Origin: an uncultured Porphyromonadaceae bacterium
GTDB lineage: Bacteria > Bacteroidota > Bacteroidia > Bacteroidales > Muribaculaceae
NCBI GenBank assembly: GCA_947176995.1
Contig: CAMWSY010000003.1
Coordinates: forward strand, 1 to 42,879
Length of the DNA stretch: 42,879 nucleotides
Direction: 5' to 3'
The notes under the pieces are model-generated. The model was not told where the DNA came from, did not search any database, and saw only the letters and a program-made list of their open reading frames with translations. The position numbers and the translations under genes are program-made. The stretch's first letter is position 1. Every line of letters begins with the position of its first letter. This document shows positions 16,508-37,610 of the stretch, one piece after another.

Positions 16508-17461
16508 TCACTTGCTCATCTCAAGCATTCTTTCGATCGGCTTCACTGCTTTGGCAGCCGTCTCTGCGTCAACCTCTATTGCAGGCGACATATTTTTAAG
16601 GCAGTCGCGCAGCTTCTCGAGAGTATTCAGCTTCATGTAGCTGCAATCGTTGCAGCCACAGGTGCTGTCGGTCGGAGGCACGGGTATGAACTCCTTGTCG
16701 GGACACGACTTGCGCATCTCATGCAGTATGCCGCTCTCGGTTGCGACTATATATTTTTTCCCTTCGCTCTCTTGAGCATGTTTGAGCAGCTTGGCGGTCG
16801 AGCCGACAACATCGGCAAGCATAAGCACCACTTTCTTGCACTCCGGATGTGCCAGCACCTCGGCGTCGGGATTAGCCTTTTTCAGTTCTATAAGCTTCTC
16901 CACCGAGAACTGTTCATGCACATGGCAGGCACCGTCCCACAGCACCATCTCCCGGCCTGTCATCCTGTTTATGTAGCTTCCTAAATTTCTGTCAGGTCCG
17001 AATATGATTTTCTCATCTTCAGGAAGCTGTTTCACGATCGACAGCGCGTTCGACGAAGTCACAACGATATCCGTCAGAGCCTTCACGGCTGCCGAGGTGT
17101 TCACATAGCTGAGCACCGTGTGACCGGGATGCGCCTTTATGAACTCGGCGAACTCGTCAGCCTGACAGCTGTCGGCAAGCGAGCATCCGGCATTCACGTC
17201 AGGCACAAGCACCGTTTTGTCAGGGCAAAGTATTTTTGCAGTCTCACCCATGAAATGCACACCGCAGAGCACTATCACATCCTCCTTGAGAGTGCGTGCT
17301 ATCTGCGCGAGGCCAAGACTGTCCCCTATGAAATCCGCGAGGTCCTGTATCTCCCCCTGCTGATAGTAGTGGGCGAGGATCACCGCACCCCTCTCTTTTT
17401 TCAGCCTGAGGATTTCCTCCTTCAGTGATTCACCGCAGCTACACTTTTCGTCGGCTTTCAT
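16508..17461 (-). CDS. nadA: Quinolinate synthase
   Basis: NadA condenses iminoaspartate with dihydroxyacetone phosphate to quinolinate in de novo NAD synthesis, using a [4Fe-4S] cluster. Conserved features in the product: ILAHYYQQGEIQDLADFIGDS, VLCGVHFMGETAKILCP, NAGCSLADSC, HPECKKVV and CGCNDCSYMKLNTLEKL, which contain the candidate cluster-ligand cysteines. The ORF track begins 37 codons earlier at 17572, but that leader (rich in Tyr, Lys and Asn) does not resemble NadA. I take the ATG at 17461 (MKADEKCSCGE), giving 317 aa, a normal length. nadB and nadC are not adjacent. Upstream is the 436-bp AT-rich gap shared with holA. Confidence 0.95.
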   Translation of the reverse strand: MKADEKCSCGESLKEEILRLKKERGAVILAHYYQQGEIQDLADFIGDSLGLAQIARTLKEDVIVLCGVHFMGETAKILCPDKTVLVPDVNAGCSLADSCQADEFAEFIKAHPGHTVLSYVNTSAAVKALTDIVVTSSNALSIVKQLPEDEKIIFGPDRNLGSYINRMTGREMVLWDGACHVHEQFSVEKLIELKKANPDAEVLAHPECKKVVLMLADVVGSTAKLLKHAQESEGKKYIVATESGILHEMRKSCPDKEFIPVPPTDSTCGCNDCSYMKLNTLEKLRDCLKNMSPAIEVDAETAAKAVKPIERMLEMSK

Positions 17462-17586
17462 TATTATTTTATAATTTGAATTCTTTGAAAAAAATTTTCT
17501 GTAGTAATAGTAATGGATGTTGACAATGCTCCACAACTTTTCAGCTCTTGCCTTGCCTTTGTCACTTATCATCCGTCATCAGTGGG

Positions 17587-17877
17587 TTATACAAGCGTTA
17601 TCTACACATGACCCTTTTAAGAATCAGCACACTACAGCTTTATAAACACACTGTTGATTTCTTGCAAAGTTAATAATTTTTACTTGTAAATAGTTTCAAA
17701 AGTGTAGAAAACCTTGTTTAGAAACACAACGTTGACCGATGATATCGTTCACGGTTCTCAACACTTAGTGGAGTTTTTTTTTTCATCGGCGCGAAGTGTT
17801 GATATGCACTATTGATATTTACAATGCTTTCTACACATTTTCATCATTATCCACACTTTGTTCACAGCTTATAAACA
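17587..17877. other. AT-rich intergenic region with phased DnaA-box-like 9-mers
   Basis: The divergent nadA-holA gap (17462-17897) contains one exact DnaA box, TTATCCACA at 17847, and several one-mismatch versions on the same strand: TTATCTACA (17598), TTATAAACA (17640 and 17869), TTCTACACA (17829) and TTGTTCACA (17858), plus a weaker TTATACAAG (17587). The boxes at 17847, 17858 and 17869 start exactly 11 bp apart, as do those at 17587 and 17598. Between the clusters is an A/T-rich stretch (17660-17720). This resembles an origin or a DnaA-controlled promoter region. Genes on the left all point left and holA points right, but spot counts of G and C on the plus strand show no obvious skew switch. 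Confidence 0.35.
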
Positions 17878-17885
17878 CAATTTTT

Positions 17886-17893
17886 TATCTTTG
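17886..17893 (+). promoter_or_regulatory. TATCTTTG -7 element directly upstream of holA
   Basis: TATCTTTG is followed by CTAT and the holA ATG at 17898, predicting a transcript that begins at or very near the start codon. The nearest TTTG upstream (17857-17860) is 25 bp away, longer than the usual 19-21, and it overlaps the DnaA-box-like cluster. Confidence 0.5.
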
Positions 17894-17897
17894 CTAT

Positions 17898-18920
17898 ATG
17901 GAAAATCCGGTCGATAACATCAGGAAACAGATAGCCGCACGCAACGTGGCGCCAGTATATTACATTCACGGTGAAGAAGGTTTCTTCATCGATGAGATAG
18001 TGCGGCTCTTTTCAGACTATCTTCCCGAGGCCGACCGGCCTTTCAACATGTTCACATTCTATGCCGCCGAGAAGACTCCCGACGATGTTATGGATATATG
18101 CCGCCGTTATCCCATGATGGCCGATAGGTTGGTGGTGATTGTCCGTGAGGCGCAGACGGCAGGCGGACGATGGTTGAACAAACTGTCATCCTACGTGGCC
18201 GCCCCGTCGCCATCCACACTTCTTGTCATTGCTGCACGCGGTGAAAATCCTTCATGTAAGGAATTTACCACAGCGGTGAAAAAAGGCGGTGGAGTGGATA
18301 TTGAATTTAAGAAAGAAAAAGAATCACACATCAATGCCTTGTTGATAGACTTTCTGGAGAAAAAGCGGCTTCGCTACGAGCCCAAGGCATTGGAGATGAT
18401 AAAAGAATTTGTAGGCACCGACTTGTCGCGCATCTACAACGAAGTGGCCAAAATGAGTGTCGCGCTCGGTGAGGGAGCCACGGTTACCCCCGAGAGTGTC
18501 GAGAGCCTTATAGGTGTCAGCACCGAGTACAACAACTTTGAACTCAAGCACGCTTTGGCGGCAAGAGATTATGTAAAAGCCATAAAAATAACCAAGCATT
18601 TCACTGCAAATCAGAAAAACAATCCTTGGGCGATCACATCCGTCACACTTTTCGATCTCTTTTCATCAGCGTTGGTGGCCTACTACACCCCCGGGGGTGA
18701 TCAGAACATAGTGAAAGCGCTTGGATTGAGAGGCACATGGCAGTTGTCCGATATATTGCTGTGCAAGTCTAAATATAACCCGTGGCAACTTATCGACATT
18801 ATTTCGCTCATCCGTCGTTTTGATGCAGCAGCCAAGGGCAATGGCAGTCGCCGTAATGCCTATCTCTTGCAGGAAGAACTCATTATGGACATCCTCACAT
18901 CCCCGGGACGCCGTTCATAA
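17898..18920 (+). CDS. holA: DNA polymerase III subunit delta
   Basis: HolA is the clamp-loader subunit that opens the beta sliding clamp. The product of 340 aa has the family N-terminus (VAPVYYIHGEEGFFIDEIVR), a degenerate AAA+ fold without a working Walker A, and typical central and C-terminal segments (LIDFLEKKRLRYEPKALEMI, NNPWAITSVTLFDLFSSALV). The ORF track extends 34 codons upstream to 17796, into the AT-rich gap. I use the ATG at 17898 (MENPVDNIRKQI), which follows a TATCTTTG promoter element by four bases. The gene starts right beside the DnaA-box-like array, and another clamp-loader gene, dnaX, lies about 5 kb away. Confidence 0.93.
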   Translation: MENPVDNIRKQIAARNVAPVYYIHGEEGFFIDEIVRLFSDYLPEADRPFNMFTFYAAEKTPDDVMDICRRYPMMADRLVVIVREAQTAGGRWLNKLSSYVAAPSPSTLLVIAARGENPSCKEFTTAVKKGGGVDIEFKKEKESHINALLIDFLEKKRLRYEPKALEMIKEFVGTDLSRIYNEVAKMSVALGEGATVTPESVESLIGVSTEYNNFELKHALAARDYVKAIKITKHFTANQKNNPWAITSVTLFDLFSSALVAYYTPGGDQNIVKALGLRGTWQLSDILLCKSKYNPWQLIDIISLIRRFDAAAKGNGSRRNAYLLQEELIMDILTSPGRRS

Positions 18921-18966
18921 TCATTACTACGCATTTGATTGTTTAACAATAAACATTGGATAACCT

Positions 18967-19827
18967 ATGAAGAAATTAACACTGTTGTTTATAATGCTGT
19001 CAGCAATTATGCCTTCTATCATGGCACAGAATACAATATCAGTCACCGGCAAGTCCGAACTCACCGTTCAGCCCGATGAAGTCCATCTTCTTCTCACTGA
19101 AAAAGAGTATCATCGCATAGATTTCAAAGGCAAGGTATTCATCGATTATGGTGATTACTCATCAGGCATAACCTTTGACCAGTCACTTTATGAGTCAACT
19201 CTCCCCGATGCGAAATTTCAATTCAAGGTAGGCGACAAAGTTTATGAAGGCAGGAAAAAAGACATCAAGTACACTCTTGTGAGCATTGATGTGCTTGAGG
19301 ATCGTGTGATCAAGGCAGCCGACAAAGCCGGGATAGCAAAAAAAGACATTAACATTTCAGAGCTTGGCGATTACTGGCGTTGGCGCAATGGTCCTTACAC
19401 TGTATCGAAGCAGTATGATATAAAACTTCATAGCCCCGAGCAGCTCAATAAATTCATTTCAGCCCTCGACAAGCAGGGAGTATCATCCCTATCCTTTGGC
19501 GAGATGAAAAACAACGATATGGAGCAGTACGACCGCAAGGGGCGCATTCAGGCATTGGAAAATGCCCGCGACAAAGCCACCTACATGGTGCAGACCTTCA
19601 ACGGCACACTTGCCGACCCACTCCAGATTGTCGATGGCAATATGCCTGTGACGACCACAGTTGTTCAGCCACGTATGCTCAAGGCCGCCGCGATGAATGA
19701 CATGGTTGAGGAAGCAGCTTACGGAGTCATGGACGCCGGTACATCCCTTGAGTCACTCAATACCTTCCCCATGATTAGGAAAACCTACAACGTCAGCGTC
19801 ATCTTCACCGTCACCTACCCCCAATAA
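18967..19827 (+). CDS. Exported SIMPL-domain (DUF541) protein
   Basis: This 286-aa protein has a signal peptide (MKKLTLLFIMLSAIMPSIMA) and a SIMPL/DUF541 domain: the opening ISVTGKSELTVQPDEVHLLL is typical, as is the second half (KGRIQALENARDKATYMV). SIMPL proteins are periplasmic or outer-membrane-associated and form oligomers in some species. Their biochemical role is poorly defined, with reports of stress-related functions. An insertion around residues 40-90 (KGKVFIDYGDYSSGITFDQ) separates the first strand from the rest and seems larger than in minimal SIMPL domains. It is 46 bp after holA. A composite hairpin repeat follows its stop codon and may end transcription. Confidence 0.8.
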   Translation: MKKLTLLFIMLSAIMPSIMAQNTISVTGKSELTVQPDEVHLLLTEKEYHRIDFKGKVFIDYGDYSSGITFDQSLYESTLPDAKFQFKVGDKVYEGRKKDIKYTLVSIDVLEDRVIKAADKAGIAKKDINISELGDYWRWRNGPYTVSKQYDIKLHSPEQLNKFISALDKQGVSSLSFGEMKNNDMEQYDRKGRIQALENARDKATYMVQTFNGTLADPLQIVDGNMPVTTTVVQPRMLKAAAMNDMVEEAAYGVMDAGTSLESLNTFPMIRKTYNVSVIFTVTYPQ

Positions 19828-19840
19828 AAATATTCCACTT

Positions 19841-19942
19841 CGCCCGTGAAACGGGCGTAACAACTGTCAGCACCGGGTGACCCGTAAGGGGAACCCGGTG
19901 TAAATTTTACATTAAATTAGAGCTGCGGAGCTGCGAAACACC
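19841..19942. repeat. Composite hairpin repeat A, copy 1
   Basis: This element contains CGCCCGTGAAACGGGCG (7-bp stem, 3-nt loop), the linker TAACAACTGTCAG, CACCGGGT...ACCCGGTG (8-bp stem), and, about 18 bp later, GAGCTGCGGAGCTGCGAAACA. A second copy with the same order and orientation is at 22511-22607. Copy 1 lies between the convergent SIMPL and CDP-alcohol phosphotransferase genes, where its hairpins could act as a bidirectional terminator. The rest of 19943-20002 shows nothing recognisable. Confidence 0.75.
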
Positions 19943-20002
19943 TCTGCCTTCTTTGTCAACTAATGACATCATCCCCACATTACATTCTCTAAATTCCCTG
20001 TC

Positions 20003-20926
20003 TTATATCTTTTTGATGAATCTACGGCATATTTTCTCATGCCTTACTATCATGTATATCATGATGAAATTAAACACCGTCAGTTCGGCAGCAAAGTAAA
20101 GCCACGGCATCTTCACTACAAGCGCGATAAAAAGAGTGATGGCGCGCCAGTTGAAAGTGAGGATGTTGGTGTATTTCATCAGCGGTTTCGATGCAGCTCT
20201 GAATTCCTCTCTGAACCAGTCAGGTATATTGCCATCGGGCCATTTTTGTCTGATTTCCCGACGAAGTTTCTGCATCTCGGGGCTTGTAGCCTCCTGTTGG
20301 AGAGTATAACCTATGTAAAAAATTAAAGTCAGTTTTTTAAGCCATTTCCGTTTCGGGGTTTCTGCAAGCTGTTTCTTCAGATTATAGGAATTATCGAGTT
20401 CGCTTCCCGATCTTCCGTTGACAAAAAACAGATGAAATTGTCGGTAAATGTCAGCCATGGCAGCCTGTTTGCCATGACATAATCCGGCTAATACAGCCAT
20501 GACCCATATTACCCACGGATATTCACTGAAAAACACCGATGTACGTGGTTCTCTAAGGCATATTGCTATGTAGATTGCGGCAAACCACAGATCCCCGGCC
20601 ATACCGTCGAGTATTCGGCCGATGCGCGAGTACTGTTTGGTCATGCGGGCAAGCTGACCGTCGGCACTGTCAAATGAATTGGCCCAGATAAGCAGAAGCA
20701 TTCCGAGCATATTGGTCCATAAATCATTGTAGTACATCATCACCCCGGCCGCCACACCTATGAAGATCGAGGCGATAGTGATGGCATTTGGGTGTATACC
20801 GAGCTTCTTTGCGATTATTGCCCATACATATCCTATCGGACGATAAAAGCACAAATCTATCGTTTCTTCTGTATCAGAGCTTTTTAGAGTGCTTTTATAA
20901 TTTTCTTTAAGTTCTTTGATATTCAT
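20003..20926 (-). CDS. CDP-alcohol phosphatidyltransferase family membrane protein
   Basis: These enzymes move a phosphoalcohol from CDP-diacylglycerol or CDP-alcohol to an acceptor, making phospholipid head groups. The 307-aa product has several hydrophobic helices and the signature DSADGQLAR...G...D, matching DxxDGxxAR-x8-GxxxD. After the third Asp the sequence is GMAGD, so the fourth Asp is one residue later than the usual DxxxD; this may reflect a subfamily. The substrate cannot be named. Helices lie around residues 45-100, 115-150 and 255-300, with a soluble loop near 165-235. GtrA and ATP-grasp genes directly upstream on the same strand suggest a small operon for envelope lipid or polymer decoration (inference). 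Confidence 0.85.
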   Translation of the reverse strand: MNIKELKENYKSTLKSSDTEETIDLCFYRPIGYVWAIIAKKLGIHPNAITIASIFIGVAAGVMMYYNDLWTNMLGMLLLIWANSFDSADGQLARMTKQYSRIGRILDGMAGDLWFAAIYIAICLREPRTSVFFSEYPWVIWVMAVLAGLCHGKQAAMADIYRQFHLFFVNGRSGSELDNSYNLKKQLAETPKRKWLKKLTLIFYIGYTLQQEATSPEMQKLRREIRQKWPDGNIPDWFREEFRAASKPLMKYTNILTFNWRAITLFIALVVKMPWLYFAAELTVFNFIMIYMIVRHEKICRRFIKKI

Positions 20927-20934
20927 GTAGTGGA

Positions 20935-21471
20935 TTACATTTTATTGGTGAAATGCCCGTGCATCACAAAATTTGTCATCGAGTGGGCTATTCGGTCAAA
21001 CCGCGTGCGGCGGTACACGAAGTAACGCTGCAAAGTAAAATTAAAACCGAGCGAGACTATGATTGCCACAAGCAGACGCGCTGCCGTGAAATATCCGTCA
21101 GGTTTGAAACCTATCGTTTCGAGAAGATGCCAGCGGCACAGAAGCCAGTACATCCCTTGCGTTCCACCGGCGTTAAGCAGCAGACTCCCCACCCATACCA
21201 TTGCGAATTTAGCTGCAAGAGCCTTCCACGGGCAGTCATCTACCCTGAAAGTGAAGCGGTAATTGAGCATGAAATTCACTATGCCGCCAGCTATTGCACC
21301 TATCGCAGCCGAGATAAGCGGAGTAAGAAAAAGCCACTTGAACATTACGAAACTCACCACAAAGTCCACCAGTCCCGATGTTTGTGATGAGACCCCCGAC
21401 CTGAGCAGGGTACTCACAAAATCGTTGCTGTAGACCAGATGGCGGCCCAGATGTTTTATTCTTCTGCGCAT
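20935..21471 (-). CDS. GtrA family membrane protein
   Basis: GtrA-like proteins are small four-helix membrane proteins often proposed to flip polyprenyl-phosphate-linked sugars. This 178-aa product shows four hydrophobic segments (about residues 30-52, 54-74, 88-110 and 130-152), with the family's NFMLNYRFTFR motif between helices 2 and 3 and the matching NFTLQRYFVYR near the C-terminus. It is 8 bp upstream of the CDP-alcohol transferase. In context it may supply or flip a lipid-linked precursor for that enzyme's product, but no glycosyltransferase gene is adjacent. Confidence 0.85.
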   Translation of the reverse strand: MRRRIKHLGRHLVYSNDFVSTLLRSGVSSQTSGLVDFVVSFVMFKWLFLTPLISAAIGAIAGGIVNFMLNYRFTFRVDDCPWKALAAKFAMVWVGSLLLNAGGTQGMYWLLCRWHLLETIGFKPDGYFTAARLLVAIIVSLGFNFTLQRYFVYRRTRFDRIAHSMTNFVMHGHFTNKM

Positions 21472-21514
21472 TGAAGTGATTGATTTACTCCTTGTTTTTT
21501 AATATCACTTCATT

Positions 21515-22387
21515 TTATCGCCTCTGCTTGATTTGTCGCAACACGTAGCGGGCTATGGCTGAGCTTGCCTCTTTGCGGCACGGTGCGAAACTGGGCCAGT
21601 CGTTCACATCTATGATCATCAGTTCACCGTTGGGCAGAAGCATACAGTCGCCGCCATACACATCTATTTCAAGAGCTTCAGCAGCCTTTTCACAGATCTC
21701 TTTCAACTTGTTCTCGTCAAAGTCAGCTTTCGACTCATCATCGGCATCAGGGCCATAGTGACGTGAATCCATTGGGAGAAACCAGTTGAAAAATCCCGTT
21801 CCCCTTATCCCGTAGAACCTTATCAGATCACCTATGACATGTTCGGTTATAAGCGCGCGCCTTATACCGCGCAGAAAATACTCATGCAGCACTTCTTGGG
21901 CTTCTTCAGCATGACGTACAAATGTCACGTCCTCCTTGTGCATCGAGTGAAAATCGGCCTGCTTTATCCAGCATTTTCCTATATTCAGTTCTTTCAACCG
22001 TTTAAGAGCCGATTTGTCAGTGTCTACTGTAAAATTCACTGGATATGGTATTGAGTTTCCCATGAGAATGCGGCTCATGCGCTCGCGCCGGCAATTCTCT
22101 ATGCCATACCCTGAATTTACAACATACATCCCCTCCTTTTCAAGTTGTTCGAGACGTTCGACACATTTCGGTGAACGGCACATTGCCAGCACGCAATCCA
22201 TCTCTTTTAATTCAGCGATGGCATTTTCATCCATTCCGCCGAATTGCTCCTCGCTGTATAGCCTGACCTCACAGCCGCGTTTACGCAACTGATCGCCTAC
22301 GGCATTCATTATAGCCGCATCATTGCCTATGTGGTTAGGGGAATAGTCTCTTGCGCGCAGTATTCCCGCAATTCTTGCTGTTGACAA
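21515..22387 (-). CDS. ATP-grasp family protein (RimK-like), TTG start
   Basis: This 290-aa protein has an ATP-grasp-like layout: an N-terminal pre-ATP domain (ARIAGILRARDYSPNHIGND), a central region with WIKQADFH and ITEHVIGDLIRFYGI, and a C-terminal metal-binding stretch IDVYGGDCMLLPNGELMIID followed by VNDWPSFAPC. ATP-grasp enzymes join a carboxylate to an amine or thiol through an acyl-phosphate; the substrates here are unknown. No ATG is available at the N-terminus: the frame opens after a stop 10 codons upstream of the TTG at 22387, and the next ATG would delete the conserved SPNHIGNDAAI. TTG is therefore the likely start. A TATCTTTG promoter element sits about 39 bp upstream. GtrA and CDP-alcohol transferase genes follow. 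Confidence 0.8.
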   Translation of the reverse strand: MSTARIAGILRARDYSPNHIGNDAAIMNAVGDQLRKRGCEVRLYSEEQFGGMDENAIAELKEMDCVLAMCRSPKCVERLEQLEKEGMYVVNSGYGIENCRRERMSRILMGNSIPYPVNFTVDTDKSALKRLKELNIGKCWIKQADFHSMHKEDVTFVRHAEEAQEVLHEYFLRGIRRALITEHVIGDLIRFYGIRGTGFFNWFLPMDSRHYGPDADDESKADFDENKLKEICEKAAEALEIDVYGGDCMLLPNGELMIIDVNDWPSFAPCRKEASSAIARYVLRQIKQRR

Positions 22388-22425
22388 AACGTGATAGTGA
22401 GGTGATAAAATTTATATTAGTTCTG

Positions 22426-22433
22426 CAAAGATA
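22426..22433 (-). promoter_or_regulatory. TATCTTTG -7 element upstream of the ATP-grasp/GtrA/CDP-alcohol genes
   Basis: TATCTTTG on the minus strand, with a predicted start near 22420 and a leader of about 33 nt before the TTG start codon. No TTTG -33 element was found at the standard spacing, so the call rests on the -7 match and its position. Confidence 0.45.
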
Positions 22434-22480
22434 ATCAAGTTATTTTAATTCTGAGGGTATGTCATGAATGCTTTTTCAAG

Positions 22481-22507
22481 ACTCCGATATCTCCGAGTTC
22501 TCCCACC
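22481..22507. repeat. 9-bp periodic repeat, copy 3
   Basis: CTCCGATAT CTCCGAGTT CTCCCACCA are three units at a 9-bp step, immediately before composite repeat A copy 2. The same unit order CTCTGATAT CTCCGCGTT CTCC occurs at 37783-37808. Confidence 0.6.
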
Positions 22508-22510
22508 AAG

Positions 22511-22607
22511 CCCGTGAAACGGGCGTAACAACTGTCAGCACCGGGTGAGCATAGCGAACCCGGTGAAAAGTGCATAGATACCCTTGAGCTGCGGAGCTGC
22601 GAAACAT
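22511..22607. repeat. Composite hairpin repeat A, copy 2
   Basis: CCCGTGAAACGGGCG, TAACAACTGTCAGCACCGG and GTGAGCATAGCGAACCCGGTG, then GAGCTGCGGAGCTGCGAAACA, repeat the order and orientation of copy 1 at 19841. The arms are identical, while the loop (AGCATAGCG versus CCCGTAAGGGG) and the spacer before GAGCTGCGG differ. It lies between the dnaX stop and the ATP-grasp promoter. Confidence 0.75.
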
Positions 22608-22614
22608 CCATAGA

Positions 22615-22667
22615 GTAGGAACGCACGATCCGTGCGTCCTCTTGATTATCAGCGTGCAACGCCCGTA
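22615..22667. repeat. GACGCAC hairpin repeat B, copy 1
   Basis: GTAGGAACGCACGATCCGTGCGTCC (7-bp stem ACGCACG/CGTGCGT) is followed by TCTTGATTATCAGCGTGCAACGCCCGT. The copy at 37684-37735 shares both the hairpin and the trailing TATCAGC-TGCAAC sequence. It abuts the dnaX stop at 22674 and could serve as its terminator, although no U-tract follows. Confidence 0.7.
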
Positions 22668-22673
22668 GTTATA

Positions 22674-24488
22674 TCACGACAGGCGCAGATCAAGTTCCTT
22701 AACAAAATCAGCCATTTGCGGATTCTTTTCAAGAAGATGCTGATATACTTCCCGGTCAGTCCATGTGCGTGGATTCCCTTCACCTGCATTTACCTCCACA
22801 TTGAGTGTCACGAAATCATTGTTGAGATTTTTATGCAGATAGGGGAGAAGACGCGATTTTTCCTCCTCCATCATCACCCTTTGCAGTTCATTTTCCACAA
22901 CGATGGTCAGGGTAGTGGTGTCGTCACCGATTTTCGGCATTGAGGCGCGCATTGTATTCACAAGGCGCTTTTCCGAGGGGCGTGCGTCCATGTAATCTTG
23001 CCACACCTCATGTAGTCGTTCGGTAGTGAACCGTGCGCTGTTGGTTTTGTTTCCTCCGCTCTGTGATTGTACCCTCTCGGGTGTCTTGTCATTGTTGATG
23101 TCGTTGATGTTGCGTAGCGACAGACCGCTGCTGCGCATCCCCCCCGTGCTCTTTATCTGCACGGTCGGTTGCGGGCGGCTTTGCCGTTGGGCAGACGGGG
23201 GAGTAGCCGTGGTAGACGGAGTCTGGGTTGTGACCGTGCGCTGTGTCTGTGGTTGCGGTGTAGCAACCGGTGTCGGTTTTGGTGTAACCGGAGTAGCCTG
23301 TGGAGCGGTGTTTGCAACGGTTGTTGTCGCTCTCACTGGTGCGAGACTGTCAAGATGCCCCTCCTCCTTCTCGCTAAAGGCGGGGGAGGGGCTTAGTAGT
23401 TGGCACAGTTTGATGAGCAGCAGCTCCGCAAGAAATGACTTGTTGGTGGCCTCGCGGTAATGCAGGTCGGCATCGTTGCAGAGACTCATGGCTTTATAGA
23501 AGAAATCGGCAGGAAATTTTGAGGCGGCTTCCGCCATAAGTTTCTTCTCCTCTTCGGGTGCATCCACAAGCTGAAGTGTGCGGGCATCGCGGGCAGCCAT
23601 CATGTCGCGTAGCCACGATGCAAGGCCGTTGATGAAAAAGTGGGTGTCAAATCCCTTGTCCCTTATCTCCTTGAACACAAGCAGAGCAGCCCCCGGGTCA
23701 GCTGTGGCAAACGCATCGCACAACCGTTTGAAATAACTTCCGTCGAGCACGTTAAGGCTCTCTATGGCAGCTTCGTATGTGATGTGACCCCGCGTCGAGG
23801 CAGCCACTTGGTCAAATATCGAGAGAGCGTCACGCATCGCGCCGTCGGCTTTCGATGCGATCACCCCGAGAGCCGACCTTTCCGCCTCTATTCCCTCCTG
23901 CCGGGCCACATCGGCAAGATGATCCGTTATGTCATCCGGAGTGATGCGGGCGAAATCATATATCTGACACCTTGACAGTATCGTCGGGATGATTTTGTGC
24001 TTTTCCGTCGTGGCAAGAATGAAAATAGCGTATGATGGCGGTTCCTCAAGTGTTTTCAGAAACGCATTGAAAGCGCTCGACGACAGCATGTGCACCTCGT
24101 CGATGATGAAAACCCTGTATTTTCCTGTAGTGGGGGGGATCAGCACCTGATCCACGAGATTGCGTATATCGTCTACGCCGTTGTTAGATGCGGCATCCAG
24201 TTCCACTATATTGAGCGACCGCCCCTCATTGAAAGCGCGGCACGAGTCGCATTCGTTGCACGGATTGCCGTCGGCTGTCGGATTGGTGCAGTTTATGGTT
24301 TTTGCAAAGATTCTCGCGCACGACGTCTTCCCCACGCCTCGCGATCCGCAGAAAAGATAAGCGTGAGCCAGCCGGTTGGTTGCTATCGCGTTTCGCAGAG
24401 TCATCGTCAGAGCCTTCTGGCCGATCACTGCGTTGAACGTCGACGGACGGTATTTTCGTGCCGAAACTATATACTGATTATTTTCCAT
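22674..24488 (-). CDS. dnaX: DNA polymerase III subunits gamma/tau
   Basis: DnaX is the clamp-loader ATPase. The product of 604 aa has Walker A (GSRGVGKTSCARIFA), the four-cysteine zinc module (C at CTNPTADGNPCNECDSC), Walker B (IIDEVHMLSSSAFNA) and sensor 1 (LATTEKHKIIPTILSRC). A Thr/Pro/Gln-rich flexible linker (about residues 375-470) joins the AAA+ part to a C-terminal domain that ends in EKNPQMADFVKELDL. I see no convincing frameshift signal, so only one long form is expected. The ORF track starts nine codons early. The ATG at 24488 (MENNQYIVSARKYRP) matches the family start and follows a TACATTTG element by four bases. It is divergent from the kinase-like gene. Confidence 0.96.
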   Translation of the reverse strand: MENNQYIVSARKYRPSTFNAVIGQKALTMTLRNAIATNRLAHAYLFCGSRGVGKTSCARIFAKTINCTNPTADGNPCNECDSCRAFNEGRSLNIVELDAASNNGVDDIRNLVDQVLIPPTTGKYRVFIIDEVHMLSSSAFNAFLKTLEEPPSYAIFILATTEKHKIIPTILSRCQIYDFARITPDDITDHLADVARQEGIEAERSALGVIASKADGAMRDALSIFDQVAASTRGHITYEAAIESLNVLDGSYFKRLCDAFATADPGAALLVFKEIRDKGFDTHFFINGLASWLRDMMAARDARTLQLVDAPEEEKKLMAEAASKFPADFFYKAMSLCNDADLHYREATNKSFLAELLLIKLCQLLSPSPAFSEKEEGHLDSLAPVRATTTVANTAPQATPVTPKPTPVATPQPQTQRTVTTQTPSTTATPPSAQRQSRPQPTVQIKSTGGMRSSGLSLRNINDINNDKTPERVQSQSGGNKTNSARFTTERLHEVWQDYMDARPSEKRLVNTMRASMPKIGDDTTTLTIVVENELQRVMMEEEKSRLLPYLHKNLNNDFVTLNVEVNAGEGNPRTWTDREVYQHLLEKNPQMADFVKELDLRLS

Positions 24489-24492
24489 CACC

Positions 24493-24500
24493 CAAATGTA
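24493..24500 (-). promoter_or_regulatory. TACATTTG -7 element directly upstream of dnaX
   Basis: TACATTTG on the minus strand, then GGTG and the ATG at 24488, predicting a leaderless or nearly leaderless dnaX transcript. A TTTG lies 25 bp upstream, wider than the usual spacing. Confidence 0.5.
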
Positions 24501-24564
24501 GTCAAATAAAGACAATTATTTGAACCAAAACCACCCTAAATTTATGAAGTATGGATTATTTTCA

Positions 24565-24572
24565 TAAATTTG
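24565..24572 (+). promoter_or_regulatory. TAAATTTG -7 element directly upstream of the kinase-like gene
   Basis: TAAATTTG is followed by CATTCT and ATG at 24579, so the transcript should start at or next to the start codon. A weak -33 element, TTTA, lies 20 bp upstream at 24541-24544. Confidence 0.5.
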
Positions 24573-24578
24573 CATTCT

Positions 24579-25361
24579 ATGGATGAGAAAGCAGACAATA
24601 CCATATTCAATGATCCTACCGGAAAGTGGACCGAGATAGAGCATCTTCCCGAGTGGGATGAGAAATTTTATCATGTCTACACGGCCAAAAAATTTGGAAA
24701 GTGGGTCATGATGAAAACACTGCGCCCGGAGTTGCGCGACGACCCCGATATGCAGGCCATGATTGAAAAAGAGTTTGAGGTGCGTTATAATTTGGCGAGC
24801 CCCAACATTATCATGATTAATGATTTCGATGATGTGCCTGGAGTCGGACGCGCCATTATCACCGATGATGTCTACGGTGATTCACTGGCTAAACTCATAG
24901 ACAAAGGCGAGGTTGACGAGTCGATACTCATTAAGGTAAACACCTGTCTGGTCGACGCGCTCGACTACATTCAGCAGAACCACATCGTCCATCATCAGCT
25001 CACCCCCGAGCGCATCATCTTCACCGAGAATATCCGTAACCTCAAGGTGATTGATGTTGGGTTCGATCAGCTTGACCATCTTTCACGTCAGGACACACGC
25101 AGTGATATCGTGGCGTTTGGAAAAATACTTCAGACGACACTTGATGCCTGCCCCCCCGAAGTGGCGCAGAGACATTCCCGCTGCCGCAAAGTGGCGCAGA
25201 ACGCCATTGCCGGGCACTACTCCGACGTGCAGGAACTCAAGATGGCCCTCAATGACCGCAAGGCTTCACGCCTCGGTGTGTTGATTGCGATATTTCTTGT
25301 CATTATGATTGTTGTGTTGGCATGGCTCACATCGGTTGTCCACCATGCACAAACCCTGTAA
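24579..25361 (+). CDS. Protein kinase-fold protein with degenerate catalytic loop, C-terminal membrane anchor
   Basis: The 260-aa product has the outline of a Ser/Thr protein kinase: a beta3-type lysine (VMMK, Lys46), a helix-C glutamate candidate (EKEFE, Glu65), a catalytic-loop segment, a DVG in place of DFG (Asp159), and SDIVAFGKIL resembling the helix-F Asp. In the catalytic loop, HRDLKPEN is replaced by HHQLTPER, so the catalytic Asp is Gln140 and the metal-binding Asn is Arg145. A glycine-rich loop is not obvious. It ends with one transmembrane helix (about residues 232-252) and a short tail, so the kinase-like part should face the cytoplasm. It is probably a pseudokinase or signalling scaffold. 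The ORF track starts at a TTG; I use the ATG at 24579. The GNAT-like gene follows after 12 bp. Confidence 0.75.
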   Translation: MDEKADNTIFNDPTGKWTEIEHLPEWDEKFYHVYTAKKFGKWVMMKTLRPELRDDPDMQAMIEKEFEVRYNLASPNIIMINDFDDVPGVGRAIITDDVYGDSLAKLIDKGEVDESILIKVNTCLVDALDYIQQNHIVHHQLTPERIIFTENIRNLKVIDVGFDQLDHLSRQDTRSDIVAFGKILQTTLDACPPEVAQRHSRCRKVAQNAIAGHYSDVQELKMALNDRKASRLGVLIAIFLVIMIVVLAWLTSVVHHAQTL

Positions 25362-25373
25362 TTATGCTTAATT

Positions 25374-26543
25374 ATGTCGATTGAAGTGCATCCCGTAGCT
25401 CCTGTGAAAGAGCAGCTTGCCAAATTCGTCGAGTTTGGCATACGTCACTACGACGGCAACGACGCATTTGTGCCGCCGCTTGTATCCGATGATATAAAGA
25501 CACTGCGCCCCGACAAGAACCCTGCTTTCGACTATTGCGAGGCCCAGTCATTCATGGCCTATCGCCGCGGTGTGCCGGTCGGGCGCATCACAGGCATAAT
25601 AAACCACAAGGCCAATGAGAAATTTGGCGAGAAAGTCATGCGTTGGGGCTTCGTCGAGTTCATCGATGACGACAAGGTTGTCGATGCGCTGTTCAAGGCC
25701 GTCAGCCGTTGGGGAGCCAAAAAAGGGATGACTGAGATGATAGGCCCCATGGGATTCACCGATCTCGACCATGAGGGTATGCTCGTCGACGGGTTCGAGT
25801 ATCTCGGCACGATGGCCACGATCTACAACTATCCCTACTATCCGCAGCAGATGGAGCGCCTTGGGATGAAAAAAGAAGTTGACTGGATCGAGTACCGCAT
25901 TGATATACCCGACGGAGTGCCTGAAAAGATGCAGCGCATCGCCGACATTGTTAAGAAAAAATATAACCTCCGCACAGTCCCCTACACATCGCGTAAAAAG
26001 CTCAAACAGGACTACGGACAGGAGCTCTTCCGTCTAATCAACGAAGCCTACGACGGTCTCTACGGCTACACCGCGCTCACCCCGAAGCAGATTGATTATT
26101 ACATCGACGAATACCTGTCGATGTTGCGTCTCGACCATGTGGTTGTCATTGTCGATGAGTACGACCGTCTGGTTGGCGTAGGCATAACAATGCCTTCACT
26201 CTCGAGGGCATTGCAGAAAAGCAAGGGAAAACTTTTCCCCTTCGGATGGTATCCACTCTTGCAGGCTATCAAAGGCAAGACCGACCGTGTCGATCTCCTG
26301 CTTGTAGCCGTGAAGCCCGAGTATCAGAACAAAGGCGTCAACTCCCTCCTTTTTGCCGAACTGATACCCGTCTACAAGAAATGCGGCTACCGCTACGCCG
26401 AGACAAACCTCGAACTTGAGAATAACCAGAGCGTGCAGAAACAGTGGGAATACTTCGACCGCATCCAGCATCGCCGCCGTCGTGTCTACCGTATGCCCAT
26501 ACCTCCTGTAGCAGCTTCTCCCGATAAAAAAGCACAGTCATAA
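25374..26543 (+). CDS. GNAT-like acyltransferase superfamily protein (YghO-like)
   Basis: This 389-aa cytoplasmic protein resembles a conserved family usually annotated as N-acetyltransferase-domain protein and similar to E. coli YghO. The N-terminal half contains FVPPLVSDDIKTLRPDKNP, YRRGVPVGRITGIIN and MTEMIGPMGFTDLDHEGMLV; the C-terminal half has a GNAT-like stretch (VDLLLVAVKPEYQNKGVNSLLFAELIP) where acetyl-CoA would bind. The substrate is unknown. It lies 12 bp after the pseudokinase gene and 18 bp before pyrH, so all three are likely co-transcribed. Function beyond acyl transfer is not supported by the sequence. Confidence 0.75.
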   Translation: MSIEVHPVAPVKEQLAKFVEFGIRHYDGNDAFVPPLVSDDIKTLRPDKNPAFDYCEAQSFMAYRRGVPVGRITGIINHKANEKFGEKVMRWGFVEFIDDDKVVDALFKAVSRWGAKKGMTEMIGPMGFTDLDHEGMLVDGFEYLGTMATIYNYPYYPQQMERLGMKKEVDWIEYRIDIPDGVPEKMQRIADIVKKKYNLRTVPYTSRKKLKQDYGQELFRLINEAYDGLYGYTALTPKQIDYYIDEYLSMLRLDHVVVIVDEYDRLVGVGITMPSLSRALQKSKGKLFPFGWYPLLQAIKGKTDRVDLLLVAVKPEYQNKGVNSLLFAELIPVYKKCGYRYAETNLELENNQSVQKQWEYFDRIQHRRRRVYRMPIPPVAASPDKKAQS

Positions 26544-26561
26544 ATTCTGATTGAAAGAAAA

Positions 26562-27272
26562 ATGAGAACATCATATAAGAGAGTCCTTCTCAAACTCAGC
26601 GGTGAGTCGCTCGCCGCCGGAAGCGGTCACGGCATCGACACAACCCGCCTCAACCAGTATGCCGCACAGATCAAGGAAGCCGTTGAAAGCGGTGTGGAAG
26701 TTTCCATCGTCATCGGCGGTGGCAACATCTTCCGCGGGCTCAAGGGTGCTTCGCAGGGCTTCGATCGTGTCAAAGGCGACCAGATGGGTATGCTTGCCAC
26801 TGTCATCAACTCGCTTGCGCTTAGTTCCGCTCTGGAGGCGATCGGTCAGAAAGCCACCGTATTCACTGCCATCAATATGTTCCCGATAGGCGAGCATTAC
26901 AGCAAGTGGAAAGCCATCGACGCCATGAAAGCCGGTCGTGTCGCCATCCTGTCGGGAGGCACAGGCAACCCGTTCTTCACCACCGACACCGGTGCGGCGC
27001 TCCGTGGAGTCGAGATCGAGGCCGATGTGATGCTCAAGGGAACACGTGTCGACGGTGTCTATACCGCCGATCCCGAGAAAGATCCCACAGCCGTGAAATT
27101 CGATGAGATTACCTACGACGAGGTCTACAACCGCAACCTTAAAGTGATGGATCTCACTGCCACCGCGCTCTGCAAGGAAAACCGCCTTCCCATCATTGTC
27201 TTTGACATGGACACACCCGGAAACCTTGCCAAAGTTCTTGCCGGAGAGAAAACCGGTACACTTGTCTATTGA
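26562..27272 (+). CDS. pyrH: Uridylate kinase (UMP kinase)
   Basis: PyrH phosphorylates UMP to UDP. The 236-aa product shows the amino-acid-kinase fold with [15 protein letters not shown], the GGGNIFRG glycine-rich loop, [16 protein letters not shown], the nucleotide-binding [18 protein letters not shown] and [15 protein letters not shown]. Length is typical. A purine-rich AAAGAAAAATG precedes the start. It forms the widely conserved pyrH-frr pair with the next gene; rpsB and tsf, often found upstream, are absent here and replaced by the GNAT-like gene. Confidence 0.97.
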
Positions 27273-27297
27273 TTATAAACTCAAACACGCATATACA

Positions 27298-27855
27298 ATG
27301 GATCCTAAGACCTACCTCAGCGACGCTGAAGAGAAGATGGAACTCGCAGTCGAGTATCTTGACGAGTCACTCGCACATATACGTGCCGGAAAGGCAAATC
27401 CCAAAATTCTCGACGGTATCCGTGTCGACTACTACGGCAGCGCGTGCCCCATTTCCAATGTGGCAAACATCAGCGTGCCCGATGCCCGCACAATCACCAT
27501 CACACCGTGGGAGAAATCCATGTTCCGCGAGATAGAGAAAGCAATCATCAATTCTGAGCTCGGCATCACACCTGAGAACAACGGTGAGGTGATCCGCATC
27601 TCCATCCCGCCACTCACCGAGGAGCGTCGCCGCCAGCTTGTGAAGCAGTCAAAAGCCGAGGCTGAGCAGGCCAAGGTGTCAATCCGCAACGCTCGCCGCG
27701 AGGGCATCGACGGTCTCAAGAAAGCCGTGAAGCAGGGTATGCCCGAGGATGTGGAGAAAGACGCTGAAAACGATATGCAGAAACTCCACGACCGCTTCAT
27801 GAAGCGCATCGACGAGCTTTTTGCTGCCAAGGAAAAAGAAATTCTCACCGTCTGA
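27298..27855 (+). CDS. frr: Ribosome recycling factor
   Basis: RRF, with EF-G, splits the post-termination ribosome. The product of 185 aa has the three-helix bundle and core motifs ([52 protein letters not shown] in the form [15 protein letters not shown], and VRNARREG in the form [14 protein letters not shown]). The ORF track starts 34 codons early inside pyrH. The ATG at 27298 ([15 protein letters not shown]) fits the family length and lies 25 bp after pyrH. Confidence 0.97.
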
Positions 27856-27861
27856 TTTTTG

Positions 27862-28641
27862 ATGCAGACCGTATTGTTCCATTCCACCGTTTTCGGGCCG
27901 ATACATAGCCGCCGTCTCGGCGTCTCGCTTGGAATAAACCTGTCGCCCGACGACGGTAAAATATGCTCTTTCGACTGCCTCTACTGTGAGGCAGGCTTCA
28001 ACGCACAGGGACCCGGCACGACCGGGTTCCCTTCGATGGAGCGTCTCAGTCACGACTTGCGCGTCAAGCTCGCCGACATGAAGCGGCAGGGCAGCAAGCT
28101 CGACGTCATCACATTCTCAGGAAACGGTGAGCCTACGCTGCACCCGCAGTTTCCCGAGGCGATTGATATTGTCACCGCTTTGCGTGACGAGTTTTATCCC
28201 GATGCGAAAATAAGCGTGCTCACCAACTCCACACGCATCGACCGTCCTGAAGTAGTCGATGCGCTCAGGCGGGCCGACAACGCCATCCTCAAGCTCGATT
28301 CCGCCCTGACACCCACCATGAGGCTCATCGATCGTCCCAATTCCCCCGGTTTTACCTCTGAGGGAGTTATTGCCCGGCTTGAGGACTTCGGTGAGAAAGC
28401 CATAATCCAGACGATGCTGCTGCGCGGAGAGTATGATGGACAGGTAATCGACAACACTACCGACGAGGAAGTGGATGCGCTTGTGCAGGCCGTCATGCGC
28501 ATAAAACCGCGTGAGGTCATGCTTTACACCATCGACCGTCCCACACCTCTTGCCACTCTTTCCAAGGTCTCTCCCGACGACCTCGAGCGCGTCGCCCGTA
28601 AGTTGCGCGACCATGGCATTACAGTAGCCACCGCCGGCTAA
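27862..28641 (+). CDS. Radical SAM protein (COG0731-type)
   Basis: The 259-aa product carries the radical SAM cluster motif CSFDCLYC (CxxxCxxC), preceded by VFGPIHSRRLGVSLGINLSP, the opening typical of the COG0731 group (relatives of wyosine-base enzymes), and followed by ITFSGNGEPTLHPQF, the GGE-like SAM-binding motif. Bacterial members are uncharacterised for the most part, so a substrate is not assigned. The ORF track includes a TTG one codon upstream; the ATG at 27862 is preferred. It lies 6 bp after frr, which makes transcription with pyrH-frr likely. Confidence 0.85.
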   Translation: MQTVLFHSTVFGPIHSRRLGVSLGINLSPDDGKICSFDCLYCEAGFNAQGPGTTGFPSMERLSHDLRVKLADMKRQGSKLDVITFSGNGEPTLHPQFPEAIDIVTALRDEFYPDAKISVLTNSTRIDRPEVVDALRRADNAILKLDSALTPTMRLIDRPNSPGFTSEGVIARLEDFGEKAIIQTMLLRGEYDGQVIDNTTDEEVDALVQAVMRIKPREVMLYTIDRPTPLATLSKVSPDDLERVARKLRDHGITVATAG

Positions 28642-28656
28642 AACACACCACCATTT

Positions 28657-29574
28657 ATGTCCGTAGTTGAACCAACACCGGTTTTCCCCGCGCCCCTCGC
28701 TCAGGGCGACCGCATAGCCATTGTTTCTCCGGCCGGATCAATAGAGGCCAAGCACGTTCATGCAGCCGTTAAGGTTCTTGAGCAACAGGGCTGGCGCCCC
28801 TACATAGGCGACTACGCTTTGGGCAAGAGCGGCTCCTACAGCGGCACAGGCACAGAGCGATTCCATGACCTGAGCCACGCCCTCAACGATCCGTCAGTGC
28901 GCGCCATTATCTGTAGCCGCGGAGGTTACGGTGCTGTTCATTTGCTCGACCGCCTTGATGCCCTCCCCGTTCAGCGTGATCCCAAGTGGATTGTAGGTTT
29001 CAGTGATATTTCGGCACTCCATGCCCTCATGGCGCGCAAAGGCATTGTGTCCGTTCATGCGCCCATGACCAAGGACATAGCCCGCGGAGCCGATGATCCC
29101 GACAATGCTTCGCTTTTCAGCATCCTGCGCGGCGAGAAACCAACACACAAATTCCCATCCTCAAAGTTCGACCGTCCCGGCCTTGCCACCGGCCGGCTTC
29201 TTGGCGGAAACCTTGCAGTGATCGCCGACCTTATCGGCACGCCGTTCGACGTCATTCAGCCCGGATCGATTCTTTTCATTGAGGACATAGAGGAGCCCAT
29301 CTACAAGACCGAGCGCATCCTTTACCAGCTCCGTCTGTCAGGAAAAATGGCCTCGTTGGCCGGACTGATGGTCGGGCAGTTCACCGGCTATCGCCCCAAC
29401 GCCAACTACACCCTCATGGAGGAGATGATAGCCGACATGGTGTCACCCTATGATTTTCCTGTGGCCATGAACGTCCCGTTCGGTCACGTCGAGCATAATA
29501 TACCCCTTGTTTCGGGAGCTAAGACAACGCTGCGCGTCACTGTTGGCGATTCCAACAGCATAGTCACATGGTAA
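28657..29574 (+). CDS. LD-carboxypeptidase (S66 family, LdcA-like)
   Basis: S66 peptidases cut the terminal D-Ala from muropeptide tetrapeptides during cell-wall recycling. All three catalytic residues can be placed in the 305-aa product: Ser116 in GFSDISALH, Glu209 in FIEDIEEP and His277 in PFGHVEHN. The N-terminal IAIVSPAGSIE and SRGGYGAVHLLD are also typical. No signal peptide is seen, which fits the cytoplasmic LdcA role. It is 15 bp after the radical SAM gene. Some S66 proteins act on microcin-type compounds (MccF), but the context favours wall recycling. Confidence 0.92.
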   Translation: MSVVEPTPVFPAPLAQGDRIAIVSPAGSIEAKHVHAAVKVLEQQGWRPYIGDYALGKSGSYSGTGTERFHDLSHALNDPSVRAIICSRGGYGAVHLLDRLDALPVQRDPKWIVGFSDISALHALMARKGIVSVHAPMTKDIARGADDPDNASLFSILRGEKPTHKFPSSKFDRPGLATGRLLGGNLAVIADLIGTPFDVIQPGSILFIEDIEEPIYKTERILYQLRLSGKMASLAGLMVGQFTGYRPNANYTLMEEMIADMVSPYDFPVAMNVPFGHVEHNIPLVSGAKTTLRVTVGDSNSIVTW

Positions 29575-29651
29575 CGAGCCGGCGGCCCGGTGGTGTAAAC
29601 TCATTTAGCGGTTAGGTTGTTAATATCTATACCAGAGTGACCGTGTCACTT

Positions 29652-30377
29652 ATGCCACCACGTCTTCAACTGTTTGCTATCATGTCACCAGCTCACAAGA
29701 AAATATTTCTGAACCTCCTGCACACCATGGTACTGGTGTTGTCGGTGATTCTCATCATCTACATTTCGGTCGATTCAATCCGCGACCGTGACTTCTTGCA
29801 GAATCATCACTACATGGTATTCCAGTTCTGGGTGTGCGTGGCCTTCATTTTCGACTTCTTTGCCGAGTTGTGGATGGCCGACAGGAAATGGGACTATGTG
29901 CGCCACAGGTGGTATTTTCTTCTCCTCTCCATCCCCTACCTCAACCTGCTCCCTTTCACCGGCTGGCTTGTTACTAACGAGGAACTCTACTTCTTCCGCT
30001 TCATCCCCTTGGCGCGCGGTGGCATGGCACTCAGCATTGTCATAGGCTACATATCCAAAAACCGCTTCCTCGGGATGCTTGTGACCTACGTGTCGATTCT
30101 CGTTCTTGTCACCTATTTCGCCGCGCTTGTATTCTATCAGAAAGAGGGCGGGGGAGTCAACTCGGCGGTTACAAACTATTGGGACGCCTTCTGGTGGGGA
30201 TGCTCGCAGGTCACCACTCTCGGATGCGACATATATCCCGTCACCCCCGTCGGAAAAATACTCTGTTGTGTGCTCTCTGCGATGGGCATAGTCATGTTCC
30301 CTCTTTTCACTGTCTATGCCACCGATGCCATTCAGCGATACTACAACCGCAATAAACAAGCTAAAAACAAAGCCTGA
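29652..30377 (+). CDS. Ion-channel-like membrane protein with a shortened selectivity filter
   Basis: This protein of about 241 aa has a layout like a six-helix voltage-gated-type K+ channel: hydrophobic segments near the N-terminus (LLHTMVLVLSVILIIYISV), around FQFWVCVAFIFDFFAELW, around WYFLLLSIPYLNLLPF, an S4-like segment with few charges (RFIPLARGGMALSIVIGYI), S5 (LVTYVSILVLVTYFAALVFY), a pore helix (YWDAFWWGCSQ) and S6. The filter reads TTLGCDIYP where K+ channels have TTVGYGDxxP, so one residue is missing and the second Gly is lost. Ion selectivity is therefore uncertain. The start is ambiguous: GTG 29637, ATG 29652 or ATG 29682. It is followed 2 bp later by an MscS channel gene. Confidence 0.7.
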   Translation: MPPRLQLFAIMSPAHKKIFLNLLHTMVLVLSVILIIYISVDSIRDRDFLQNHHYMVFQFWVCVAFIFDFFAELWMADRKWDYVRHRWYFLLLSIPYLNLLPFTGWLVTNEELYFFRFIPLARGGMALSIVIGYISKNRFLGMLVTYVSILVLVTYFAALVFYQKEGGGVNSAVTNYWDAFWWGCSQVTTLGCDIYPVTPVGKILCCVLSAMGIVMFPLFTVYATDAIQRYYNRNKQAKNKA

Positions 30378-30379
30378 CC

Positions 30380-31759
30380 ATGCATACACTCCCTACCGAC
30401 TCACTGATACCCTCCCATGCCATAGCCACCGGCATTCTGGCCTTTATCCACAAGATGCTTGATGCCATCGGGCTTGGTGACGTGCGCCGCCTCGACGATG
30501 TGCTCTACTCCGTCGTGATTCTTGTCGTGGCTTTGTTTGTGGCCATGCTTGTGAGGCGCGCCGCTATAGCGATAGTGCGCAGAATACTCCGTATGCGCAA
30601 CAGTCAGCTCGCACAGCAGATCATCGACCTGCGCATAGGCACCAAATGCACCCACATTCTCACCCCTCTGGTGATAATGTCATTCATTCCGTGGGCATTT
30701 CAGGCCGACCATGCGATTCACTCCATCCTCATCCGCATCCTTGTAGTGTGGCTGTATATAGCCTTTGCTATCGGCATCAACAGCCTGCTGTCGCTTATAT
30801 GGCTTCGTTTCGACAACCGCGAGAACGAGAAGAAACACCCCTTGCGCGGACTCCTCATCTCTGCCCACGGAGTAGTCTGGGTCATTACCGCCATTGTCTC
30901 TATCGGAGTGGTGATTCAGAAAGATCCACTTACTCTTCTCACCGGCATGGCTGCAATGTCGGCCGCGTTGCTCCTTATCTTCAAGGACAGCATTCTCGGC
31001 TTCGTTTCAGGCATCCTGCTATCGCAAAACGACATGATCCGCGTGGGCGACTGGATTGTCGTGCCCAACACCCCCGCCAACGGCTCGGTCGAGGACGTCA
31101 CCCTCACTGTTGTGAAAGTGCGCAACTGGGACAATACACTGGTCATGCTTCCACCCTACACACTCATTTCCGGCTCGTTCCAGAACTACCGCGGAATGTT
31201 TGAGATCGGACGCCGTCTTATCGAAGTTAACTTCTTGGTCGATATGTCGAGCATCTTCAACGCCGACAGTGCATTCATTCAGCGCATTGTGCAGAAATAT
31301 CCTCAGATGCAGTCATTTGTCGACGACGCCCTTAAAAACGGCCAGCCCTTCAACGGAGGCACCGCTCCCGTCAACGGCTCCATCGAGACCAACGCCGGCC
31401 TTTTCCGCGCCTATCTCTGCGAGTACCTTCTCAAGCACCCGTGCATCTCCTCGCAGGAGTACCTTATCGTGCGCATTATGCCTCCCACAGCTCAGGGAGC
31501 ACCCCTTCAGGTGTGGTGTTATGCCGACGGTGATGCCACCTCGTGGGTAAAATATGAATCCGTCCGCACCCAGATCATCGAGCACGTCGTAGCCACCGCC
31601 CCCGAGTTCGGCATTGTCATCTACAACGCTCCCGACCGCAACACATTTGAGCTTAAAGACCCCACATCCTCCCAAAACGCTCCTGCCGTCGCCTCTTCAC
31701 CATCATCGGCTGCAGCTGCACCCTCACAGCCATCACAACCACCAGTAGCAAATGAGTAA
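30380..31759 (+). CDS. MscS-family mechanosensitive ion channel (YbdG-like)
   Basis: MscS channels open under membrane tension to release solutes. The 459-aa product has about five transmembrane segments (around residues 42-65, 95-110, 115-140, 155-180 and the pore helix) and the MscS core: GMAAMSAALLLIFKDSILGFVSGI forms TM3 and its cytoplasmic junction, followed by the beta domain (IRVGDWIVVPNTPANGSVEDVTLTVVKVRNWDNTLVMLPP). The size and the RNWDNT-type beta domain resemble YbdG/MscM. The C-terminus is a Ser/Ala/Pro-rich low-complexity tail. It follows the channel-like gene by 2 bp and overlaps the LytM gene by 8 bp. Confidence 0.92.
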   Translation: MHTLPTDSLIPSHAIATGILAFIHKMLDAIGLGDVRRLDDVLYSVVILVVALFVAMLVRRAAIAIVRRILRMRNSQLAQQIIDLRIGTKCTHILTPLVIMSFIPWAFQADHAIHSILIRILVVWLYIAFAIGINSLLSLIWLRFDNRENEKKHPLRGLLISAHGVVWVITAIVSIGVVIQKDPLTLLTGMAAMSAALLLIFKDSILGFVSGILLSQNDMIRVGDWIVVPNTPANGSVEDVTLTVVKVRNWDNTLVMLPPYTLISGSFQNYRGMFEIGRRLIEVNFLVDMSSIFNADSAFIQRIVQKYPQMQSFVDDALKNGQPFNGGTAPVNGSIETNAGLFRAYLCEYLLKHPCISSQEYLIVRIMPPTAQGAPLQVWCYADGDATSWVKYESVRTQIIEHVVATAPEFGIVIYNAPDRNTFELKDPTSSQNAPAVASSPSSAAAAPSQPSQPPVANE

Positions 31760-32618: not shown

Positions 32619-32622
32619 CCCA

Positions 32623-35693: not shown

Positions 35694-35717
35694 TTCATGT
35701 AAAGAGGGGGGACTGAT

Positions 35718-37555: not shown

Positions 37556-37585
37556 ATATTATTTTATAAATGTTTCATTTAACAT

Positions 37586-37610
37586 GTAGGGACGCACCAC
37601 GGTGCGTCCG
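37586..37610. repeat. GACGCAC hairpin repeat B, copy 2 (hairpin only)
   Basis: TGTAGGGACGCACCACGGTGCGTCC forms a 9-bp stem GGACGCACC/GGTGCGTCC with a 2-nt loop. It matches copy 3 in the TGTAGGGACGCAC arm and CGTCC end but lacks the trailing TATCAGC-TGCAAC sequence. It sits in the argH leader, downstream of the argH promoter. Confidence 0.7.

What the first reader, a model, noticed from the sequence alone, without database searches (positions are those of the whole stretch)
17587..17877. DnaA-box-like array with 11-bp phasing between nadA and holA
One exact TTATCCACA and several one-mismatch boxes lie on one strand. Start positions 17847, 17858 and 17869 are exactly 11 bp apart, as are 17587 and 17598, matching roughly one helical turn. 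Between them is A/T-rich DNA. The genes to the left all point left for 17 kb, and holA points right. This could be the chromosome origin, a DnaA-titration site, or DnaA control of holA. Against an origin: my spot counts show C at or above G on the plus strand on both sides, with no clear skew switch.
Basis: partly seen in the sequence, partly recalled or inferred. Interest (0 to 1): 0.65.

Follow-up and report, generated by a model that had tools for sequence, protein, structure and literature searches.

The report
Chromosome replication origin beside nadA
The gap in front of the nadA gene carries a fixed set of binding sites for the replication starter protein DnaA, and in related gut bacteria the same gap lies where the two halves of the chromosome meet, so it is most likely the place where this bacterium starts copying its chromosome.

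Summary
The real pattern is four same-strand TTATNNACA boxes in two pairs, 42 and 22 bp apart. In the 1.83-Mb MAG the only two such pairs found are these.

The interpretation 'chromosome origin' is supported by comparison. TTATNNACA boxes lie upstream of nadA across Bacteroidales at 5.9 per kb, against 0.5 in GC-matched DNA, in a fixed register. They follow nadA, not holA. In two near-complete family members GC skew flips at nadA's upstream gap; it also flips there in a same-genus genome and in Parabacteroides. dnaA is far away. The window itself shows no flip because holA and about 25 kb beyond it carry wrong-sign skew; in a sister species the sign turns positive just past that block. I read the block as a rearrangement next to the origin.

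Verdict: oriC, about 0.85, inferred by homology without experiment. A bonus: Bacteroidales boxes favour TTATCAACA, alongside a changed DnaA recognition motif (HATV).

The parts
17462..17897 (.). oriC candidate: gap between the likely nadA start (Met38) and the holA start
   Evidence: (stops in the nadA N-terminal extension in G047 and G153).
17598..17606 (+). DnaA box 1 TTATCTACA (nadA-proximal pair)
   Evidence: invariant in three species; register -181 from nadA residue 50 shared with many relatives.
17640..17648 (+). DnaA box 2 TTATAAACA, 42 bp from box 1
   Evidence: invariant in three species; register -223; a 41-44 bp pair occurs in 27 of 92 nadA loci.
17847..17855 (+). DnaA box 3 TTATCCACA (distal pair)
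   Evidence: invariant in three species.
17869..17877 (+). DnaA box 4 TTATAAACA, 22 bp from box 3
   Evidence: invariant in three species.
17703..17711 (-). Weak box-like site TTTTCTACA
   Evidence: Read from sequence; conserved in the three-species alignment; function inferred.
17798..17806 (-). Weak box-like site ATATCAACA
   Evidence: Read from sequence; conserved in the three-species alignment apart from an N in G153; function inferred.
17660..17722 (.). A/T-rich, strongly conserved block, candidate unwinding element; overlaps the nadA promoter
   Evidence: 17673-17697 is 84% A+T; block well conserved in three species. Unwinding is inferred.
17665..17672 (-). nadA promoter -7 element TAACTTTG
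   Evidence: TTAACTTTGC-type k-mers in 73-81 of 92 nadA upstreams; invariant in the family alignment; matches the Bacteroidota -7 consensus TAnnTTTG (own knowledge).
17886..17893 (+). Likely holA promoter -7 element TATCTTTG
   Evidence: Sequence; consensus from own knowledge.
16508..17461 (-). nadA, quinolinate synthase: the gene the origin travels with
17898..18920 (+). holA, DNA polymerase III delta subunit; next to the origin only in this species and its sisters G047 and G153
17898..42879 (.). Block with wrong-sign GC skew for an origin-proximal right arm; probable rearrangement next to the origin, extending to about the window end

Best explanation
The gap is the chromosomal replication origin (oriC). 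DnaA binds two same-strand box pairs, one beside nadA (17598, 17640) and one about 200 bp away (17847, 17869), on either side of an A/T-rich stretch that holds the nadA promoter. The helical phasing (42 and 22 bp) would let DnaA assemble a filament that melts the A/T-rich stretch and lets the helicase load, starting forks in both directions. dnaA lies elsewhere on the chromosome. Shown: the boxes, their conservation and register, and the skew switch at the same gap in relatives. Inferred: DnaA binding, the melting site and activity in this species.
For: Box density upstream of nadA 5.94/kb vs 0.51/kb in GC-matched windows. Fixed register across Muribaculaceae and other Bacteroidales. Only two tandem pairs in the 1.83-Mb MAG, both here. 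36 of 36 box positions invariant in three species against 71% for the gap, P about 0.0006. GC skew flips at this gap in G087 (negative to 1.374 Mb, positive from 1.377 Mb, nadA at 1.380 Mb) and G057, in same-genus G026 (-0.05 | +0.18) and in Parabacteroides massiliensis (-0.07 | +0.08). dnaA is about 600 kb from nadA in G087. oriC far from dnaA is reported as common in Bacteroidetes (PMC4755523). The same box consensus is also denser upstream of dnaA in relatives, 1.31 vs 0.13/kb.
Against: No skew switch at the gap in the window itself: fourfold-site skew of right-hand + genes is lagging-like (-0.47). In sister species G153 the sign turns positive only about 22-24 kb to the right of the gap. 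Skew at nadA is weak in Bacteroides ihuae and unclear in B. oleiciplenus and in one non-Bacteroidales genome (G188). The MAG is 71% complete and lacks dnaA. Nothing experimental.
Confidence: 0.85

Rival explanations
1. A former origin: the box set is still conserved, but in this lineage initiation has moved about 22-25 kb to the right, where the skew now switches.
For: Skew in window and G153 switches only past the holA block.
Against: No TTATNNACA cluster lies near the new switch point in G153, while all four boxes at nadA are invariant in three species. A rearranged block gives the same skew pattern; its genes are scattered in G026, G087 and G057.
Confidence: 0.07
2. DnaA control of nadA (and, here, holA) transcription, or DnaA titration, without origin function.
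For: Boxes overlap or flank both promoters.
Against: The gene opposite nadA varies freely in Muribaculaceae while the boxes stay. Regulation or titration would not put the skew switch at this gap in several genomes. Some control of nadA and holA by DnaA may come in addition.
Confidence: 0.05
3. Chance boxes in A/T-rich DNA.
For: TTATCCACA with one mismatch is not enriched in the window as a whole.
Against: 0 of 20,000 simulations, GC-matched background ten times lower, unique in the MAG, conserved in register.
Confidence: 0.01

Closest known systems
Ori-Finder predicted oriC of Prevotella intermedia chromosome 1 (PMC4755523)
   Same: Bacteroidales; DnaA boxes at a GC-skew transition; dnaA far away.
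   Different: The passages read do not name the neighbouring genes or a nadA link; boxes were sought with the E. coli consensus. Whether it lies at nadA was not checked here.
Escherichia coli oriC with DnaA
   Same: Intergenic, A/T-rich, several 9-bp boxes with helical phasing, unlinked to dnaA.
   Different: Box consensus here is TTATNNACA, best TTATCAACA, rather than TTATCCACA. DnaA recognition motif is HATV where E. coli has HTTV (own knowledge). No GATC/SeqA or IHF elements were sought.
Bacillus subtilis type bipartite oriC
   Same: Two box clusters with a gap between them.
   Different: Both clusters lie in one intergenic gap, not split by dnaA.

Membership tests
Bacterial chromosomal oriC | Cluster of DnaA boxes beyond chance | tested here: met
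Bacterial chromosomal oriC | Boxes conserved in orthologous position in relatives | tested here: met
Bacterial chromosomal oriC | Located at the GC-skew minimum, in relatives with long contigs | tested here: met
   G087, G057, G026, Parabacteroides massiliensis; weak or unclear in two Bacteroides.
Bacterial chromosomal oriC | Located at the GC-skew minimum in this genome | tested here: inconclusive
   No switch in the window; the sister species switches about 22-24 kb away; the MAG is too fragmented for a chromosome-wide plot.
Bacterial chromosomal oriC | A/T-rich unwinding element next to the boxes | tested here: inconclusive
   Conserved 84% A+T stretch between the pairs; melting not testable here.
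Bacterial chromosomal oriC | Binds DnaA and supports autonomous replication | not testable with these tools
   Needs footprinting, ChIP or a replicating plasmid.
dnaA-linked oriC | dnaA adjacent | tested here: not met
   No dnaA found in the MAG; dnaA and nadA lie on different contigs in G047 and far apart in G087 and G057.

The most novel reading that the evidence does not exclude
Bacteroidia share one ancestral origin that has stayed attached to nadA while dnaA and the gene on the other side moved freely, and its DnaA boxes have shifted to TTATCAACA together with a change in DnaA's recognition helix (HTTV to HATV, and loss of the preceding Asp in Muribaculaceae).
Probability: 0.5. Interest if true: 0.65.

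Novelty: new member of a known kind. Interest (0 to 1): 0.5.

Why it matters
Origins in Bacteroidota are hard to find because they are not next to dnaA and their boxes do not match the E. coli consensus. A nadA anchor plus a lineage-specific box would let oriC be located even in fragmented MAGs of these very abundant gut bacteria. That helps growth-rate estimates from coverage, oriC plasmids and studies of replication control. The link between box position 6 and the DnaA recognition motif is directly testable.

Tried and rejected
Boxes as a holA feature: rejected, of 30 holA upstream regions proximal boxes occur only in the window and G047. TTATCCACA plus one mismatch as the search motif: uninformative. 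RNA element in the gap: only a chance Rfam hit, E 0.82. Second origin at the far end of the holA block: no box cluster there in G153. Literature for a nadA-oriC link: nothing found; only open-licence papers were searchable. Chromosome-wide skew in G188: no clear pattern.

Full report
What is in the sequence. The window is contig C3 of a 1.83-Mb MAG (204 contigs, 71% complete). Its genus also contains G026, whose nadA contig has the same length (110,132 bp) and nadA position as Muribaculaceae bacterium HAN052, so the host is Muribaculaceae. nadA and holA are confirmed by NCBIfam. TTATCCACA with one mismatch is not enriched in the window as a whole.

A better motif. K-mers upstream of nadA in 92 loci show strong excess of GTTGATA (95 hits against 4 expected) and related words, the reverse complement of TTATCAAC. 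With TTATNNACA, the window gap has four + strand boxes at 17598, 17640, 17847 and 17869. None of 20,000 simulated gaps had four, and the only two tandem pairs of this kind in the MAG are these (reversed control 0). The motif was chosen after looking at relatives that include the window, so the independent evidence is the conservation and the skew, not this count alone.

The boxes follow nadA, not holA. Upstream of holA in 30 loci, proximal boxes occur only in the window and in G047, which share the nadA-holA arrangement. Upstream of nadA, boxes with up to one mismatch occur at 3.7/kb against 0.40/kb in flanking DNA. TTATNNACA occurs at 5.94/kb against 0.51/kb in GC-matched windows. The register is fixed: about -181 and -223 from nadA residue 50, with a 41-44 bp pair in 27 loci, and a second group near -410 to -470. 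In many Bacteroides the common pair is inverted and 199 bp apart. The gene on the other side differs between Muribaculaceae loci, while in Bacteroides it is usually the same gene, which I read by eye as a SpoU/TrmH-type methyltransferase.

Skew. In G087 (one contig, 3.31 Mb) the sampled GC skew is mostly negative from about 0.17 Mb up to the 1.374-Mb bin and positive after 1.377 Mb; nadA is at 1.380 Mb and dnaA at 0.782 Mb. In G057 it flips at 2.943-2.944 Mb, at nadA. It flips at nadA in same-genus G026 (-0.048 | +0.179) and in Parabacteroides massiliensis (-0.067 | +0.077), weakly in B. ihuae, and not clearly in B. oleiciplenus. In the single-contig genome G248, from the same class but another order, there is a weak flip at nadA; G188 is unclear. 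So the nadA gap marks the skew switch in at least four genomes.

Why the window lacks the flip. The + strand is C-rich on both sides. Fourfold-site skew of right-hand + genes is -0.47, lagging-like, against +0.12 for left-hand - genes. Sister species G153 has the same nadA-gap-holA order (about 87% identity) and its skew becomes positive about 22-24 kb beyond the gap, with no box cluster there. The genes of this block are scattered in G026, G087 and G057. The simplest reading is that a block was rearranged next to the origin in the ancestor of these three species. In G047 the corresponding contigs show little asymmetry. A shifted initiation point remains possible.

Constraint and anatomy. Across the window species, G153 and G047 all 36 box bases are invariant against 71% of the gap (P about 0.0006). 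Between the pairs lies a conserved A/T-rich block with the nadA -7 element TAACTTTG, a candidate unwinding element. The nadA start is probably Met38 (17461), because the upstream extension has stops in relatives.

Box and DnaA. TTATCAACA is the commonest box: 2.12/kb in nadA upstreams against 0.040/kb in downstream DNA. In Bacteroides position 6 is A in 54 of 57 boxes and never C. DnaA domain IV reads DHATV in the Bacteroides and Parabacteroides examined and [TS]HATV in the Muribaculaceae examined, where E. coli has DHTTV (own knowledge). I infer, but did not show, that the two changes are linked.

Known or new. An origin far from dnaA is stated for Bacteroidetes in PMC4755523, and origin databases hold predictions for complete genomes. 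I found no paper naming nadA as the anchor, but most subscription papers are not in the library. So this is a new member of a known kind, with a useful pattern that may be class-wide.

Noticed in passing
nadA upstream regions of L033-L112, L124-L133; DnaA in L113, L114, L119, L121, L194, L196: Bacteroidales origin boxes prefer A at position 6 (TTATCAACA), and DnaA domain IV has HATV, with the preceding Asp replaced by Thr/Ser in Muribaculaceae: possible co-variation of box and initiator.
   Followed up: partly
L237-L256 (mostly Bacteroidia outside the family): Boxes upstream of nadA also occur in several other families of Bacteroidia, so the nadA-oriC link may be class-wide.
   Followed up: partly
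window 16508-17572: The nadA ORF as called is probably too long; the first 37 residues are broken by stops in G047 and G153, and conserved sequence begins near Met38.
   Followed up: yes
window 18790, 18883, 18986: Three further TTATNNACA sites at the end of holA and just after it, conserved in position in G153; unexplained.
   Followed up: no
G087 C1, about 25 places: Many near-identical copies of a 262-aa ORF matching the DnaA AAA+ family weakly: probably the IstB-like helper of an amplified insertion sequence.
   Followed up: no
G122 C1 2175963-2178675: In this one relative dnaA lies about 1.2 kb upstream of holA; whether this is ancestral or chance was not examined.
   Followed up: no
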